Positions 1,959 to 27,771 of a DNA stretch of 36,432 nucleotides are shown here, piece by piece. Positions within the stretch are counted from its first letter, which is position 1. Every line of letters begins with the position of its first letter. The notes below the pieces were generated by a model. That model saw only the letters and a list, made by a program, of their open reading frames with translations. It was not told where the DNA came from and ran no database searches. Source of the DNA: Desulfurivibrio sp. (GTDB taxonomy: Bacteria > Desulfobacterota > Desulfobulbia > Desulfobulbales > Desulfurivibrionaceae); NCBI GenBank assembly GCA_013791995.1, contig VMSS01000227.1:1-36432 (forward strand). Direction: 5' to 3'. Made by a program: the position numbers and the translations under genes.

Positions 1959-2108
1959 GTAAGCGATTACAGGGTACGGAAGAACCCTGTGAGCAGGTAA
2001 GCGACCGGAAGGGAGACACTCCGGATAACCAGAAGCAAACAGGTCGATAACAACCAAGCGATCGGTAGCGAGACTGCGAAGCAGATGCCGTGCCCTGTGA
2101 TCGCTTGC
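1959..2108 (+). repeat. Dispersed structured repeat, copy A
   Basis: 21-bp closing stem gtaagcgattacagggtacgg / ccgtgccctgtgatcgcttgc (18 Watson-Crick + 3 G-U); conserved GCGAGACTGCGAAGCAGATG at 2068-2087. Confidence 0.75.
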
Positions 2109-2155: not shown

Positions 2156-3661
2156 ATGCTTCTTATCCATCCCCCAGCCGCCAAGGGTTGCGAACCCCCT
2201 GCCGGGATTGCCCGCCTGGCCGGAACCCTTCGGGGTCATGGCCTGGACTGCACCCTGCTGGACGCCAACCTCGAAGGCCAGATGTTCCTGTTCGCCGCCC
2301 CGAACCTCGGCACGGATACCTGGAGCCTCCGGGCGGGCAGAAATCTCTCCGATAATCTGGCGGCCTTGCGTACCCGTGCGCTGTACCAAAACCCTTCCCG
2401 CTACCGCCGGGCAGTGGCGGACGTCAACCGGGTGCTTGAGCAAACCGGTCGGAAACACCATCTCTCCCTCAGCCTCGCAAACTATCAGGACAAGAACCTC
2501 TCTCCCTTGAAAAGCACGGATCTTCTCCGGGCTGCGGAACATTACGAAGCAAACATCTTTTCCCCATACTTCACGAACCGGCTCCCCAGTCTTATCGAAG
2601 AAACCCGCCCCACTCTCATTGGCATCTCCTTAAACTACTTAAGCCAGGCCACCACTACCTTTGCCATGGTCGGCTTCCTTAAGAAGCACTATCCCGGGCT
2701 GCCGGTTGTGCTGGGGGGCGGGCTGATCACCTCCTGGCTGCGCAACCCGGATTTTCGCAACCCCTTTGCAGGGTTGATCGACCATTGCCTTGCCGGGCCC
2801 GGAGAAGAACCGCTGGTCAAACTTCTTTCCGGTAATTTTTCCCCTCGCCACCATACGCCTTCCTACCTCGGTCTGCCACTGGCCGATTATCTGGCACCGG
2901 GCCTGATTTTACCTTACGCCGCCTCTTCTGGGTGCTACTGGAACAACTGCCTGTTTTGCCCGGAAAAGGCCGAGGGCAACCCGTACATCCAGATTCCTCC
3001 GGCCACGGTGCTGGCAGATATCGCCAGCCTGAAAGCTGCCACCTGCCCCAGCCTGCTCCATTTCCTCGACAACGCGGTGAGCCCTGCTTTAATGCAGGCC
3101 TTAGCCGCGGAACCGCCGGGAATGGACTGGTATGGTTTTGCCCGGATCAGCCCACAGCTGGCCGATCTTGATTTCTGCCATGCCCTGCGCCAATCCGGAT
3201 GCCGAATGCTGAAGCTGGGCCTTGAATCGGGCGACCAGACCGTGCTGGACGCCATGAACAAGGGGCAGGATCTGGCCTTGATCGAAAAGGCGCTCAATAA
3301 TTTGGCTGCGGCCGGGATCGCCACCTATATCTACCTGCTCTTTGGCACCCCATCGGAATCACTTGCCGAAGCGCGCCGAACCTTGGACTTCGTGGCTCGG
3401 CACCATGAATCCATCACCTTTCTCAATCTGGCCGTGTTCAACATGCCCCTCGGCAGTCCGGAAGCTTCCTCCGTGGTGCGCAACGAGTTTTACGGAGGCG
3501 ACCTTTCCCTGTACACCGACTTCGAACACCCACGGGGATGGTCCCGCAAGGAAATCAGGAGGTTCCTCGACCAGGAATTCAAACGCAACCCTGCCATTGC
3601 CCGGATTCTCCATCGCGATCCGGTGCTTTTCACTTCCAACCATGCCGCTTTTTTCTGCTGA
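2156..3661 (+). CDS. B12-binding-type radical SAM protein
   Basis: N-terminal MLLIHPPAAKGCEPPAGIARLAGTLRGHGLDCTLLDANLEG (B12-binding-like); cluster motif SSGCYWNNCLFCPE; downstream radical SAM TIM-barrel motifs (LKLGLESGDQ, YIYLLFGTPSES). Confidence 0.85.
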   Translation: MLLIHPPAAKGCEPPAGIARLAGTLRGHGLDCTLLDANLEGQMFLFAAPNLGTDTWSLRAGRNLSDNLAALRTRALYQNPSRYRRAVADVNRVLEQTGRKHHLSLSLANYQDKNLSPLKSTDLLRAAEHYEANIFSPYFTNRLPSLIEETRPTLIGISLNYLSQATTTFAMVGFLKKHYPGLPVVLGGGLITSWLRNPDFRNPFAGLIDHCLAGPGEEPLVKLLSGNFSPRHHTPSYLGLPLADYLAPGLILPYAASSGCYWNNCLFCPEKAEGNPYIQIPPATVLADIASLKAATCPSLLHFLDNAVSPALMQALAAEPPGMDWYGFARISPQLADLDFCHALRQSGCRMLKLGLESGDQTVLDAMNKGQDLALIEKALNNLAAAGIATYIYLLFGTPSESLAEARRTLDFVARHHESITFLNLAVFNMPLGSPEASSVVRNEFYGGDLSLYTDFEHPRGWSRKEIRRFLDQEFKRNPAIARILHRDPVLFTSNHAAFFC

Positions 3662-22665: not shown

Positions 22666-22798
22666 GTAAACTGTTCAGCAGCGCCACAGATGCTAGGAAG
22701 AGGTCCGCGCAGTGTGCTGCCGCACACAAGCGGGCCGATGACAGCTAAGCGAGCACAGCGAGACTGCGACGCAGATGCGGTGCTGCTGGACAGTTTAC
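22666..22798 (+). repeat. Dispersed structured repeat, copy B
   Basis: Closing stem gtaaactgttcagcagc/gctgctggacagtttac; inner stem ggtccgc/gcgggcc; hairpin GTGTGC-tgcc-GCACAC; core GCGAGACTGCGACGCAGATG. Confidence 0.8.
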
Positions 22799-24909
22799 TG
22801 TTCCAGCCCGAACTCAAAGGCCATCCCGGTCTTTGCCAGGTGGCCGAGGATATTCTTGAGTCCTTGCAGGGTATCGACCTGAAAATTGACCTGCCAGGCA
22901 GAGGTGCGCGACGGTCGGCTGGAAAGCAGTTCGATCTCGCTGATCTTCATCTCTTCCGGAGCCACGCCCAGCATCATCAGGATACGGTTACGGGACGGGG
23001 CCTCCAGGATGAGGATGTTCTGCATCTTGGGCACCGCCGTTTCCTTGAGCCGCCAGCGCACTTCAACCAGGTCCTCCCGCTGGACGCGGAGTGAGGTGAT
23101 AGTAGAGCATTCCTTCTGGTGAATGGAGAGGCCGCGTTCGCTGAGCAACCCGTACAACACTTTTTCCGTGGGCACCGGGTTGCAGCACCGTGAAAATTTG
23201 ATGCAGGCAGGATCCAGGGTGGCAAGTTCTATACGGTTCAGGCTGCCGGTTGGAGGCAGCAAGGTTTCCTTGTCCGCGTACAGCCGATTTTTGATTTCGT
23301 TAATGAGTTCCCGCAACCGGAACCTGCCTTCGCCCAGCCCAAGAAAAAGATCCGGCAAATCCTTTGCCCCAAGGGGCGCCATGATGCTTCCCATACCGGT
23401 TTTTTCCAGGAGATCATAGGGCAGACCATAGCACTTGAGCTCCTGCCGAAGGATGCTTTCGCCGATCATGTGGGCCAAGGCCTCGCGCCGCTGGCGGAAC
23501 AATTTGGAAAGCTCCGCCCTGGCCTTGGGGGTCTGGCAGCGCTGCTGAATCTCCGGCTCGAAACGCACCGGATCTTTCTGGCAGATGATCTCCACCTGAT
23601 CACCGTCTTCAAGAAGGGCATCGGGCTCTACCTGCCGCTTGCCGATCTTGGCCTTGATGCAGCGCTTGCCCACATCCGTGTGCACTTTGAAGGCGAAATC
23701 CAGCACAATACTGTGGGCAGGCAGCTCAATCGGGTCCCCTTTGGGAGTGTAGGTGTATATAGCCTTCTTGCTGCTGACCGCGATCATCTCCCGGTAGGAG
23801 AGATCCTCGTCCGTCCCGAGAATATCCAGCATCTCCCGCAGTTCCACCTCAAAACTGCTGGGCACCGTCTTGTGAACAAACCATTCCCGCACCAGCCCGG
23901 TACGGGAGGAAGTGATCATTTCCTCGGTACGGATCTTGAACAGATAGTTGTGCCCCCTGATGTTGGCCCGGGTATGGAGGCTCCGGTAGCCGGTAGCCTT
24001 GGGGTTGGCGATGAAATCACGGATGGTTCTGGGGATGGGTGGATAATTCTGGTGAATGACGCCGAGAATCCGGTAACAGGTTTGGATGTCGTTGGCAACG
24101 ATGATGAATTCCAGTGGATTGGCGATGGTCTTGTGGAGAAGCTTGTGGGCCGGATCAAAATAGGCCCAGAGCCCCTTGGGATTGAGGCGGATTTCGTGGG
24201 TGATCCACACCTCCTTCATCCGATCCTCAAGGGTGCGCTTGATGGCAAGCACCTCTTCACTGCCTTGCAGCCGTTTGATTCCGGCCAGCACCTTCAGGCT
24301 CTGCCGCGGAAATTTATACATCAGGGCCAGGGTATACAACTCGCGCTTGATGTTGTTCAACCCCATGACCTTGGCCAGGGGCGCATAGATGTCCAGGGTT
24401 TCCTCGGCGATTTTCTGCCGCTTGTCCTTGGGCATGGAGCCCATGGTCCGCAGATTGTGCAGCCGGTCCGCCAGCTTGATCAACAGCACTTCAAGATGAG
24501 CGGCGGCTCCGGAAAAAAGCTTGCGGTGAACCAGCTTGTAAAAGGTCTGCTTGTTTCCGGAAAAATTGGCGATCTTGGTGCATGCATCCACGATAATTTC
24601 GATGTTTTTGCCGAATATCTCACCGATCACCTCGCTGGTCACTTCGGGCACATCCTCCACCGTATCGTGGAGCACGGCGGCGGCCAGCAGCTCCGGATCA
24701 CGGATTTCCAACTCCTCCACCAGGATTTTCGCCACCTGGAGGGGGTGGCTGACATAGACCTCGCCGGACTTGCGCCGCTGGCCCTGATGGGCGGAAACGG
24801 CAAAGGACAGCGCCTCCCAGAAAATCTTGGCCGGACCTTCCTGGCCGCCGATAACCTGCTCCATCCGTTCGCAATAGGCGGCTATGTTAAATTTTTTGGA
24901 AGGTGCCAT
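22795..24909 (-). CDS. RelA/SpoT (RSH) family bifunctional-type protein with HD, synthetase-like, TGS and ACT-like regions
   Basis: HD: RRKSGEVYVSHPLQVAKIL, AAVLHDTVEDVPEVTSEV; synthetase-like IRDFIANPKATGYRSLHTRANIRGHNYLFKIRTEEM; TGS IYTYTPKGDPIELPAHSIVLDFAFKVHTDVGKRC. Confidence 0.92.
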   Translation of the reverse strand: MAPSKKFNIAAYCERMEQVIGGQEGPAKIFWEALSFAVSAHQGQRRKSGEVYVSHPLQVAKILVEELEIRDPELLAAAVLHDTVEDVPEVTSEVIGEIFGKNIEIIVDACTKIANFSGNKQTFYKLVHRKLFSGAAAHLEVLLIKLADRLHNLRTMGSMPKDKRQKIAEETLDIYAPLAKVMGLNNIKRELYTLALMYKFPRQSLKVLAGIKRLQGSEEVLAIKRTLEDRMKEVWITHEIRLNPKGLWAYFDPAHKLLHKTIANPLEFIIVANDIQTCYRILGVIHQNYPPIPRTIRDFIANPKATGYRSLHTRANIRGHNYLFKIRTEEMITSSRTGLVREWFVHKTVPSSFEVELREMLDILGTDEDLSYREMIAVSSKKAIYTYTPKGDPIELPAHSIVLDFAFKVHTDVGKRCIKAKIGKRQVEPDALLEDGDQVEIICQKDPVRFEPEIQQRCQTPKARAELSKLFRQRREALAHMIGESILRQELKCYGLPYDLLEKTGMGSIMAPLGAKDLPDLFLGLGEGRFRLRELINEIKNRLYADKETLLPPTGSLNRIELATLDPACIKFSRCCNPVPTEKVLYGLLSERGLSIHQKECSTITSLRVQREDLVEVRWRLKETAVPKMQNILILEAPSRNRILMMLGVAPEEMKISEIELLSSRPSRTSAWQVNFQVDTLQGLKNILGHLAKTGMAFEFGLEQ

Positions 24910-24991
24910 GGGTAGTCGCTGTCTTTCTTATCCGGTTTTGGGTAATTTGATGCCCTGTCCCTGCAAATAAGGTACAATCTCAGTTATCAGG

Positions 24992-25007
24992 TAGTCTTAT
25001 AAGACTA
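24992..25007. promoter_or_regulatory. 16-bp perfect palindrome TAGTCTTATAAGACTA, possible operator between RSH gene and rnr
   Basis: Sequence is self-complementary; lies 83-98 nt upstream of the RSH start. Confidence 0.4.
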
Positions 25008-25103
25008 TTTCGTTCTCAACCCTTGTGCAATGATTTTCCATTTCTTTTAAAAAATAGCGTAACTATCCAGCGTGATGCTGGAATCAGATAAAAACCACAC
25101 AAT

Positions 25104-25215
25104 GTAACTGTTCGGCAATGCCGGCCAAAAGGCCTGTGAAGTGTGCTGTTGCACATGAGCAGGCTCATGACGGCTGAGCGAGACTAGCGAAGTAGATATG
25201 CTGCTGAACAGTTAC
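25104..25215 (+). repeat. Dispersed structured repeat, copy C
   Basis: Closing stem gtaactgttcggca/tgctgaacagttac; inner stem ggcctgt/gcaggct; hairpin GTGTGC-tgtt-GCACAT; core ATGACGGCTGAGCGAGACTAGCGAAGTAGAT. Confidence 0.8.
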
Positions 25216-25240
25216 ACAATAGCCGGGGAGAGGCACGCCT

Positions 25241-27556
25241 GTGACACGGAGAGGAAAGGTTTTTCACAGCAAACATGGTCGCCCGGGAAAACGACAGCGC
25301 GAAGGTGGCAGACCGCCCCGCCAACACCAGGAAGCACGCTTTGAAGGCGAGATCCTGGGCCGAATCTACACTGCGGAGATGCCGCTTTCCGCGCAGGACC
25401 TGCTTGAGGCCCTTGAGCTGAGCAAGAGCCACCGGCAGGAGGTGCTGGGGGTACTGGAGGATCTCTGCAGACGCAAGGTTCTTTCCTGCCGCAGAGACAC
25501 CTTTGCCCTGCGCAAGAGCGTGGAGCTGTTTGCCGGCCCGATCAGCGTGACCACCAAGGGGTATGGCTTTGTCGCTCCCACCGAGGCTCCGGCCGAACTG
25601 GAGATCGACCAGGACGTCTTTATCCCACCCGGCATGCTGGGCGGCGCAGCCCACAACGACAAGGTGCTGGTCCAATTGATGAGCCGCCGCCAGGGCCGTT
25701 ACGAGGGCAGGGTAATCGCGGTCCTGAACCGGGCTACCACCCGGCTGGTCGGGGTCTACATGGCCGGGGGCACTACCGGGCTGGTGACCCCGGAGGACAG
25801 TCGCTTCCCCTACAATCTGGTCATCCGTAAGGAGGACAGCCGGGGTGCCAAGAACGGCGACGCGGTGTTGGCCGAGGTCACCTCATTTGCTGCCGGGCAG
25901 CGCAACCTGGACGGCATCATCCTTGAGGTGCTGGGCAACCCCAAGGATATCCAGGTGCAGACCGAGATGGTCATCCGCAAGTTCGACCTGCCCCATCTCT
26001 TTACCCAAGAGGTCACCACGCAGGTGGAGGGGCTGGACCCGGAGGTGAAAATGACCCCCGGCCGCACCGACCTCCGGGGGGTGGTCCACGTAACCATCGA
26101 CGGAGAAACAGCCCGTGATTTTGATGATGCCGTGGCCATCGAACCCCTGAAAAATGGCTACCGGCTCTATGTCTCCATCGCCGATGTCAGCCATTATGTC
26201 CGGCCGCATACCCCGGTGGATGTGGAAGCGTACCAGCGCGGCACCAGCGTCTATTTTCCCACCCGGGTCATCCCCATGCTGCCGGAGCGGTTGTCCAACA
26301 ACCTCTGCAGCCTGGTTCCCAACGAGGACCGCTACACCTTCACCGCCATGCTCGATTTTGACGAGCACGGCAAGCGGCTGGGCAAACGCTTCATGAAAAG
26401 CATCATCCGCAGTCGGCATCGCCTCACCTACACCACGGTCAAACAGGTGCTGACGGACCGCGATCCCGCGGTACTGAGCCAGTACGCCGACATAATCCCG
26501 GCCCTGGAGATGATGGGCCGCCTGGCCCTGAGCCTGGAAAAACGACGGATCAAACGGGGAAGCATCGGCTTTGAACTGCCGGAGCCCTTGGCGGTACTGG
26601 GCGAAGACAACACCGTGCAGACCATCAAGCGGAGCGAACGCAATCAGGCCCACAAGCTCATCGAAGAGTTCATGCTGGCCGCCAACGAGGCGGTGGCCGA
26701 AACCCAGACCGAAGGCAAGATCGACTCCCTCTACCGGATCCACGAACCACCCGACCCGCTCAAGGTGGCCGAATTCACCGAGTTTGCCCAAAGCATGGGT
26801 TTGAATGTGGATGACGGCGACGGCTCGCCCAAGTGGTTCGGCCAAGTGCTGGCCATGGCCGCCGGCACCCCCCAGGAATACATCATCAGCAATCTCCTGC
26901 TCCGCACCATGCAGCAGGCCCGTTACTCCCAGCACAATCTCGGCCATTTCGGCCTGGCCGCCACCCACTACACCCATTTCACCTCCCCCATCCGGAGGTA
27001 TCCGGACCTCATGGTCCACCGGGCCCTGGCCGCAAGCCTGCAGAAAAAAGGAAAGGTTTTACCCGCCGGCGAGACGGTTTCCACCGAAGAGGCCGGCACC
27101 TTTCTCTCCAAACGGGAGCGGGTGGCTGTAGAGGCCGATCGGGAGATGATGGAACGGCTTCAGGTTCACTTCATGGCCGACAAAATCGACGAGACCTTTG
27201 AGGCCATTATTTCCGGAGTCACCTCCTTCGGCTTGTTTGTCGAACTGACCGAGGTGTTTGTCAACGGCGCCGTGCCCATCACCGAGATGCGGGATGACTA
27301 TTACGAACTGGAGGAGGGCCGCCACCGGCTCATCGGCCAGAGGACCAAAACCATCTTCCAGATCGGCGATCTGGTGCAGGTGCGGTTGACCAGCGTGGAA
27401 ATCCCTCGAAGACGGATCAATTTCAGCATTGAGGAAAAACTGGCCGGAGCCACGGACCTGGCCAAACCTGCCACGGGCAAGCGGGTGAAAGGGCCGACCA
27501 AAGACCGCAAAAAAGCCGCCGTCCAACCAAGGAAGCGTGCCGTCAAAGCAAAATGA
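25241..27556 (+). CDS. rnr: Ribonuclease R
   Basis: GTG start; cold-shock-like N-terminal domains, RNB catalytic VHVTIDGETARDFDDAVAIE, C-terminal S1 domain and basic tail. Confidence 0.93.
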   Translation: MTRRGKVFHSKHGRPGKRQREGGRPPRQHQEARFEGEILGRIYTAEMPLSAQDLLEALELSKSHRQEVLGVLEDLCRRKVLSCRRDTFALRKSVELFAGPISVTTKGYGFVAPTEAPAELEIDQDVFIPPGMLGGAAHNDKVLVQLMSRRQGRYEGRVIAVLNRATTRLVGVYMAGGTTGLVTPEDSRFPYNLVIRKEDSRGAKNGDAVLAEVTSFAAGQRNLDGIILEVLGNPKDIQVQTEMVIRKFDLPHLFTQEVTTQVEGLDPEVKMTPGRTDLRGVVHVTIDGETARDFDDAVAIEPLKNGYRLYVSIADVSHYVRPHTPVDVEAYQRGTSVYFPTRVIPMLPERLSNNLCSLVPNEDRYTFTAMLDFDEHGKRLGKRFMKSIIRSRHRLTYTTVKQVLTDRDPAVLSQYADIIPALEMMGRLALSLEKRRIKRGSIGFELPEPLAVLGEDNTVQTIKRSERNQAHKLIEEFMLAANEAVAETQTEGKIDSLYRIHEPPDPLKVAEFTEFAQSMGLNVDDGDGSPKWFGQVLAMAAGTPQEYIISNLLLRTMQQARYSQHNLGHFGLAATHYTHFTSPIRRYPDLMVHRALAASLQKKGKVLPAGETVSTEEAGTFLSKRERVAVEADREMMERLQVHFMADKIDETFEAIISGVTSFGLFVELTEVFVNGAVPITEMRDDYYELEEGRHRLIGQRTKTIFQIGDLVQVRLTSVEIPRRRINFSIEEKLAGATDLAKPATGKRVKGPTKDRKKAAVQPRKRAVKAK

Positions 27557-27626
27557 ACCAAGAGATGCAGGATATGGTGCAATATTCAGCTCGATGCCGG
27601 AATTGAACGAAAACCACTACATGCAA

Positions 27627-27752
27627 TTACTGTTCAGCAGTGCCACAGATGCGCACCCCGCAAAGGGGTATAAACTCCAGCGGCTTGCGAATAGTACTAC
27701 TGCTACATGAGCAAGCCGATGACAACGCAGATGTGGCACTGATGGGCAGTTA
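27627..27752 (+). repeat. Dispersed structured repeat, copy D
   Basis: Closing stem ttactgttcagcagtgccaca/tgtggcactgatgggcagtta; inner stem cggcttgc/gcaagccg; GATGAC...CGCAGATG; upstream about 45 nt also resembles that of copy C. Confidence 0.78.
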
Positions 27753-27771
27753 CGATACGGTGCGGGAGCAG

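What the first reader, a model, noticed from the sequence alone, without database searches (positions are those of the whole stretch)
22666..27752. Dispersed family of structured intergenic elements with wobble-only stem variation (four copies in this window)
Seen directly: four intergenic elements (1959-2108, 22666-22798, 25104-25215, 27627-27752), all on the + strand. They share one layout: long closing stem, inner stem, apical hairpin with 4-nt loop, then right inner arm followed by GATGAC, then GCGAGACTGCGAAGCAGATG, then right closing arm. Stem sequences differ between copies but pairing is kept (inner stems ggtccgc/gcgggcc, ggcctgt/gcaggct, cggcttgc/gcaagccg). Almost all non-Watson-Crick pairs are G-U on the + strand and would be A-C on the - strand. 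Inference: selection acts on a + strand RNA (or on one folded DNA strand), so this may be an undescribed structured RNA or a folded-strand mobile element (MITE/REPIN-like). I do not recognise it as a known class.
Basis: partly seen in the sequence, partly recalled or inferred. Interest (0 to 1): 0.85.

Follow-up and report, generated by a model that had tools for sequence, protein, structure and literature searches.

The report
Folded mini-transposons planted at gene ends
The four folded intergenic elements are copies of a very abundant, apparently undescribed family of tiny non-autonomous transposons in sulfur-cycling bacteria, probably moved by an IS66-type transposase but carrying a folded core that has been conserved far longer than their ends, which makes the question of what that fold does testable.

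Summary
Observation confirmed and extended. The host MAG (a Desulfobulbales/Desulfurivibrionaceae relative) has about 72 copies on both strands; 52 of 58 genomes searched among it and its relatives have them, Desulfurivibrio alkaliphilus AHT2 at least 150. Rfam has nothing. Ends and duplication length equal those of IS66-family, ISBst12-group transposons of the same order and of ISDge4, seen transposing experimentally. So this is a MITE, not a REPIN. The unusual part: the core fold is conserved across families and, more weakly, across the phylum while the arms change; stems co-vary; single-step pair changes favour G-U over A-C (264:71), so the + strand fold is what is kept. Second surprise: where a gene points at the right end, its stop codon lies within 12 nt of that end in 123 of 158 copies; the left end shows this much less (29 of 100). 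The host genus lacks the transposase now. What the fold does is unproven.

The parts
1959..2108 (+). Copy 1 hairpin, type-B arms (GTAAGCGATTACAGGG../..CCCTGTGATCGCTTGC), long form with an extra inner copy of the GGTAAGCGA..CTCCG module; no target-site duplication found
22666..22798 (+). Copy 2 hairpin, long form with 3' branch; its terminal GTTTAC supplies the TAA stop codon (22795-22797, minus strand) of the RelA/SpoT-like gene 22795-24909; the same junction is kept in genome UBA2273 (L088)
25059..25215 (+). Copy 3, full unit: left end 25059-25103 (GTAACTATCCAGCGTGATGCTGG..) plus hairpin 25104-25215
25051..25058 (.). Left target-site duplication AAAATAGC of copy 3
25216..25223 (.). Right target-site duplication ACAATAGC of copy 3 (7/8)
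27579..27753 (+). Copy 4, full unit: left end 27579-27626 (GCAATATTCAGCTCGATGCCGG..) plus hairpin 27627-27753; no 3' branch, but a CACCCC..GGGGTATAAACTCC insert
   Evidence: boundaries read from sequence
27571..27578 (.). Left target-site duplication GATATGGT of copy 4
   Evidence: read from sequence
27754..27761 (.). Right target-site duplication GATACGGT of copy 4 (7/8)
   Evidence: read from sequence

Best explanation
The elements are old copies of a family of non-autonomous DNA transposons (MITEs, roughly 150-220 bp). Shown by sequence: 8-bp target-site duplications; a left end of about 45 nt and a right end that match the terminal repeats of ISBst12-group IS66 transposons; no transposase gene inside. 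Inferred: an ISBst12-type IS66 transposase acts in trans on both ends and inserts the unit as double-stranded DNA, the enzyme having since been lost from the host lineage. The right terminal repeat is also the right arm of a long hairpin whose core is conserved while the arms drift in pairs, on one strand (+). Inferred: the + strand folds as a single strand (RNA, or a DNA strand) and that fold helps the family, either by promoting its mobilisation or by being tolerated or useful after insertion. Shown: copies accumulate with the right end at the stop codon of a gene pointing at it, often supplying the TAA. Inferred: this reflects insertion preference plus selective retention.
For: The 8 nt after the right end recur upstream of the hairpin, mostly 27-57 nt away and peaking at 45-46 nt: 121 matches at 7/8 or better against 19 with swapped flanks; 87 units listed; perfect duplications around near-identical young copies in G052 and G043. 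IS66 transposons of the same order (NF033517, 290 bits for the G048 one) have ends GTAACTATCCAGC, GTAACTATTCAGC, GTAACTGTTCAGG, GTAACTACTCAGCC with perfect 8-bp duplications; ISDge4 (ISBst12 group) has a GTAACTGCTCAGCA end and an 8-bp repeat on observed transposition (PMC12898284), and three sampled copies carry that end letter for letter. Fold; 3' branch closing pair C-G 34 / G-C 10, no mismatch among 44. Same-site copies in different species: arms more conserved than the adjoining left end in 22 of 26 pairs, 18 double compensatory changes. Stop codons within 12 nt: 123/158 right vs 29/100 left; random-position background 0.7%.
Against: No relative of the IS66/ISBst12 transposase was found in the host or any of 16 congeners, and no IS66 domain in G043, where copies are young. 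The IS66 loci examined do not contain the core, so it is not a simple internal deletion of a known parent. Compensatory stem changes could come partly from template switching or gene conversion between arms or copies; whole apical stems are swapped at shared sites. Where a gene reads into the element it is more often antisense to the folding strand (158 vs 100), which argues against a plain mRNA 3'-end RNA function. Orientation to replication is even, 75:75 in D. alkaliphilus, giving no support for a lagging-strand DNA role. Counts treat copies as independent, and genes were called by a simple script.
Confidence: 0.8

Rival explanations
1. REP/REPIN-type element moved as single-stranded DNA by a RAYT (Y1) transposase.
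For: Palindromic, intergenic, high copy; strand-specific fold. Y1 genes occur in 24 of 28 genomes searched.
Against: No Y1 match in G000, G005, G027, G035, all of which carry elements. 8-bp duplications and GTAA ends. The one Y1 gene found inside a unit (L303) is an IS200-like insertion splitting an arm.
Confidence: 0.04
2. The core is a functional RNA (own transcript, or antisense to gene 3' ends) and the transposon is only its vehicle; retention at stop codons reflects regulation of the neighbour gene.
For: + strand bias, tandem G.A modules, covariation in core and branch, core layout kept in other orders of the phylum while arms change; arms kept at shared sites while the left end decays; association with stop codons is stronger in copies without a detectable duplication (95/112) than in those that still show it (28/46).
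Against: No transcript data; no promoter identified; orientation to neighbours mixed; copy number far above what a regulator would need.
Confidence: 0.25
3. The stems are kept by mutation mechanics (quasi-palindrome template switching, gene conversion between copies) and the elements are junk; position at stop codons is only where insertion does least harm.
For: Apical stems and optional modules are exchanged at shared sites; compact genomes leave little free DNA.
Against: Such repair would erase, not preserve, the fixed U.G/G.U and G.A modules; it does not predict a 4-5 fold excess of G-U over A-C nor the left/right difference at stop codons.
Confidence: 0.15
4. Transcription terminators or other ordinary intergenic hairpins.
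For: Position right after stop codons.
Against: No T run after the stem in the copies read, shared sequence core, target-site duplications, order-wide homology.
Confidence: 0.03

Closest known systems
ISBst12 group of the IS66 family (e.g. ISDge4, PMC12898284)
   Same: GTAACTRYTCAGC-type terminal repeats and 8-bp duplications
   Different: Autonomous, single transposase gene (475 aa in G048); the IS66 loci tested lack the folded core
Bacterial MITEs: Correia/NEMIS, ERIC/IRU, RUP (reviewed in PMC2229807, PMC10969869)
   Same: 100-200 bp, many copies, transcripts predicted to fold into long stems, thought to be mobilised in trans; ERIC acts on mRNA in an orientation-dependent way
   Different: Those three are listed with TA at their termini; here ends are IS66-like with 8-bp duplications, the core outlives the ends over great phylogenetic depth, and the right end sits at stop codons
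bcr1 of the Bacillus cereus group (Okstad 2004, PMC524882, not read here; characteristics from own knowledge)
   Same: ~150-nt mobile repeat with a conserved structured transcript
   Different: No shared sequence known to me; different phylum
REP/RAYT and GTAG/CGTC repeats (PMC3733652)
   Same: Palindromes with a defined strand, high copy
   Different: 20-40 bp, tetranucleotide tag, Y1 transposase, no 8-bp duplications

Membership tests
MITE mobilised by ISBst12/IS66 | Terminal repeats match the autonomous element | tested here: met
   13-14 nt identity of ends, several subtypes in parallel
MITE mobilised by ISBst12/IS66 | Same target-site duplication length (8 bp) | tested here: met
MITE mobilised by ISBst12/IS66 | No transposase gene, small size | tested here: met
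   units of roughly 150-220 bp
MITE mobilised by ISBst12/IS66 | Internal sequence derived from the parent | tested here: not met
   no core in five IS66 loci; only the ends are shared. This feature is usual for MITEs, not required of all
MITE mobilised by ISBst12/IS66 | Transposase present in genomes with young copies | tested here: inconclusive
   present in G048, remnants in G052, absent from G043 and the host genus; MAG gaps possible
MITE mobilised by ISBst12/IS66 | Transposase moves the element | not testable with these tools
   needs an assay
REP/REPIN (RAYT) | RAYT Y1 transposase in genome | tested here: not met
   none in G000
REP/REPIN (RAYT) | GTAG-tagged 20-40 bp palindromes without duplications | tested here: not met
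Known Rfam family | Covariance-model match | tested here: not met
   only one chance-level sub-threshold hit
Functional structured RNA | Covariation beyond relatedness controls | tested here: met
   R-scape itself was not available, and relatedness is only partly controlled
Functional structured RNA | Transcribed discretely | not testable with these tools
   no RNA-seq

The most novel reading that the evidence does not exclude
The core is an ancient functional nucleic-acid module (RNA or folded DNA strand) that has been carried by several transposon-end types across Desulfobacterota and takes part in directing or retaining insertions so that the right end lands at the stop codon of a gene facing it, a form of gene-end targeting not known to me for IS66-type elements.
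Probability: 0.25. Interest if true: 0.88.

Novelty: new variant of a known kind. Interest (0 to 1): 0.64.

Why it matters
It names a dominant repeat class of an important sulfur-cycling bacterial group (at least 150 copies in the isolate D. alkaliphilus AHT2, whose genome paper has no mention of transposons or insertion sequences). It offers a MITE family in which the fold outlasts the ends, so the old question whether MITE structure is passive or selected can be tested, and a stop-codon placement rule that is checkable in a culturable strain.

Tried and rejected
RAYT/REPIN: rejected. Classical terminator: rejected, no T run. Simple internal deletion of IS66: not supported. Replication-strand orientation: 75:75, no signal. 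Rfam at relaxed threshold: nothing. Viral contigs: exact core pattern absent. The core-pattern hit in a Mesorhizobium MAG (L159) gave no model match and is taken as chance. Literature: no paper found describing the element in Desulfobulbaceae or Desulfobulbales; the two repeat surveys read do not name Desulf- genomes. An ORF-bearing unit (L303) first looked like an autonomous element but is an IS200-like nested insertion.

Full report
The observation. Pairing of the arms is real: on 21 own-genome short copies, 95.6% of outer-stem cells pair and 18 of 25 outer pairs show changes on both sides; no shuffle reaches the observed totals and slid controls collapse. The + strand folds better than its shuffles and, in each of the four cases, has the lower minimum free energy of the two strands.

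Distribution. A covariance model (R1) from those 21 copies finds 70 distinct places in the host MAG (2.96 Mb), 39 plus and 31 minus; adding the 1959 and 25104 copies, which R1 misses at that threshold, gives about 72. It rings in 52 of 58 genomes, host and relatives. The complete genome G019, whose length of 3,097,763 bp equals that published for Desulfurivibrio alkaliphilus AHT2, has at least 150 (the scoring cap). Named hits come almost only from Desulfobulbaceae and related Deltaproteobacteria MAGs. Weaker matches occur in 13 genomes of other orders sampled from the phylum.

True boundaries and mode of spread. Near-identical copies in G052 and G043 show the unit directly: 8-bp repeat, GTAACTATCCAGCTTAGTGCCGCAGAATTGGCATCTACTGGGAACC, hairpin, 8-bp repeat. 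Over 248 copies with an intact right end, the 8 nt after that end recur upstream mostly 27-57 nt left of the hairpin, with a sharp peak at 45-46 nt; flanks swapped between copies give 19 matches against 121. In the window, copies 3 and 4 keep 7/8 duplications; none was found for copies 1 and 2. The ends come in parallel subtypes (GTAACTATCCAGC, GTAATCGTTCACC, GTAACTGATCAC with TAAGCGATTACAGG). Looking for transposons with such ends led to IS66-family, ISBst12-like elements of the same order: 1.6-2.4 kb, ends GTAACTATCCAGC, GTAACTATTCAGC, GTAACTGTTCAGG, GTAACTACTCAGCC, perfect 8-bp duplications; the G048 one has a single 475-aa transposase gene. An ISBst12-group element caught transposing in Deinococcus geothermalis has GTAACTGCTCAGCA as one end and an 8-bp repeat (PMC12898284). 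That the transposase acts on the small elements is inference. The host genus has no such gene now, and none of five IS66 loci tested contains the core.

Anatomy of the core. Read from sequence: an outer stem of about 27 bp ends in CCGCAGATGC/GCAGATGCGG, which places two G.A pairs between Watson-Crick pairs; a second tandem G.A can form at AAGAGG/CCGATG below the inner stem GGYCTGC/GCAGGCC, and a third at GCGAAG/TGAGC below the apical hairpin. The third is replaced by ordinary pairs in copies with the CATAC..GTATG apical hairpin (columns 44-45 with 64-65). On the other strand these would be C.T mismatches. The G.A geometry is inferred from sequence, not measured. The optional 3' branch GCTAAGCGAGC-N3-GCGAGACTGCGAA has a closing pair that is C-G in 34 and G-C in 10 copies and never mismatched, with inner pairs such as GC/GC, AC/GT, CC/GG and GT/AC. 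In D. alkaliphilus and in other orders of the phylum the layout survives with different sequences and different arms.

Which strand is selected. Over 116 copies, single-step changes give G-U 264 times and A-C 71; between nearest neighbours 199 and 40. Copies at the same site in different species still show 18 double compensatory changes, 37 G-U against 15 A-C differences, and their arms are more conserved than the adjoining left end in 22 of 26 pairs. Exchange of whole apical stems at shared sites says that gene conversion or re-insertion also acts.

Where copies sit. About 90% are intergenic. Where a gene points at the right end, its stop codon is within 12 nt of that end in 123 of 158 copies; for the left end 29 of 100. 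In about 35 copies the stop is the TAA of the element's own GTAAC; the window's copy 2 does this for the RelA/SpoT-like gene, and the same junction is kept in UBA2273 (L088). A random position has such a stop 0.7% of the time. The left/right difference holds in copies that keep duplications (28/46 vs 9/31) and is stronger in those that do not (95/112 vs 20/69), so both insertion preference and retention may contribute. Orientation to the replication fork is even in D. alkaliphilus.

Verdict. Mobile element of the MITE kind with ISBst12/IS66-type ends: strongly supported. Conserved + strand fold: supported. Its role: open; the mRNA that most often runs in would carry the other strand, so a plain 3'-UTR function is not the obvious answer. 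Limits: copies are not independent, genes were called by a simple script, named genomes were sampled through a core pattern, and no expression data were at hand.

Noticed in passing
L303 1331-2081 (minus strand), L191: An IS200-like element (Y1 gene, 142 aa) is nested in the left hairpin arm of one copy, whose 8-bp duplication AAGCTTGC is intact.
   Followed up: yes
L416, L417, L418, L420, L421, L422: In two phylum-level genomes of different families (G176, G212) a longer shared unit with ends around CCGGATTATGCAGCTCGCAAG..GAGCCCCTTGCGGCTTCAAATGCCTGAGGATTTA carries the core, suggesting a subfamily with other ends and recent exchange.
   Followed up: no
L321 about 3290-3570: Two elements inserted in tandem, with the same 8-bp sequence CTGATTTT occurring three times, around and between them.
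   Followed up: no
window 1959-2108: Copy 1 carries the GGTAAGCGA..CTCCG module inside the inner arm as well as a 3' branch, so the module occurs at two positions.
   Followed up: partly
L309: In one G043 copy the left-end segment lies on the other side of the hairpin, as if the hairpin had flipped.
   Followed up: no
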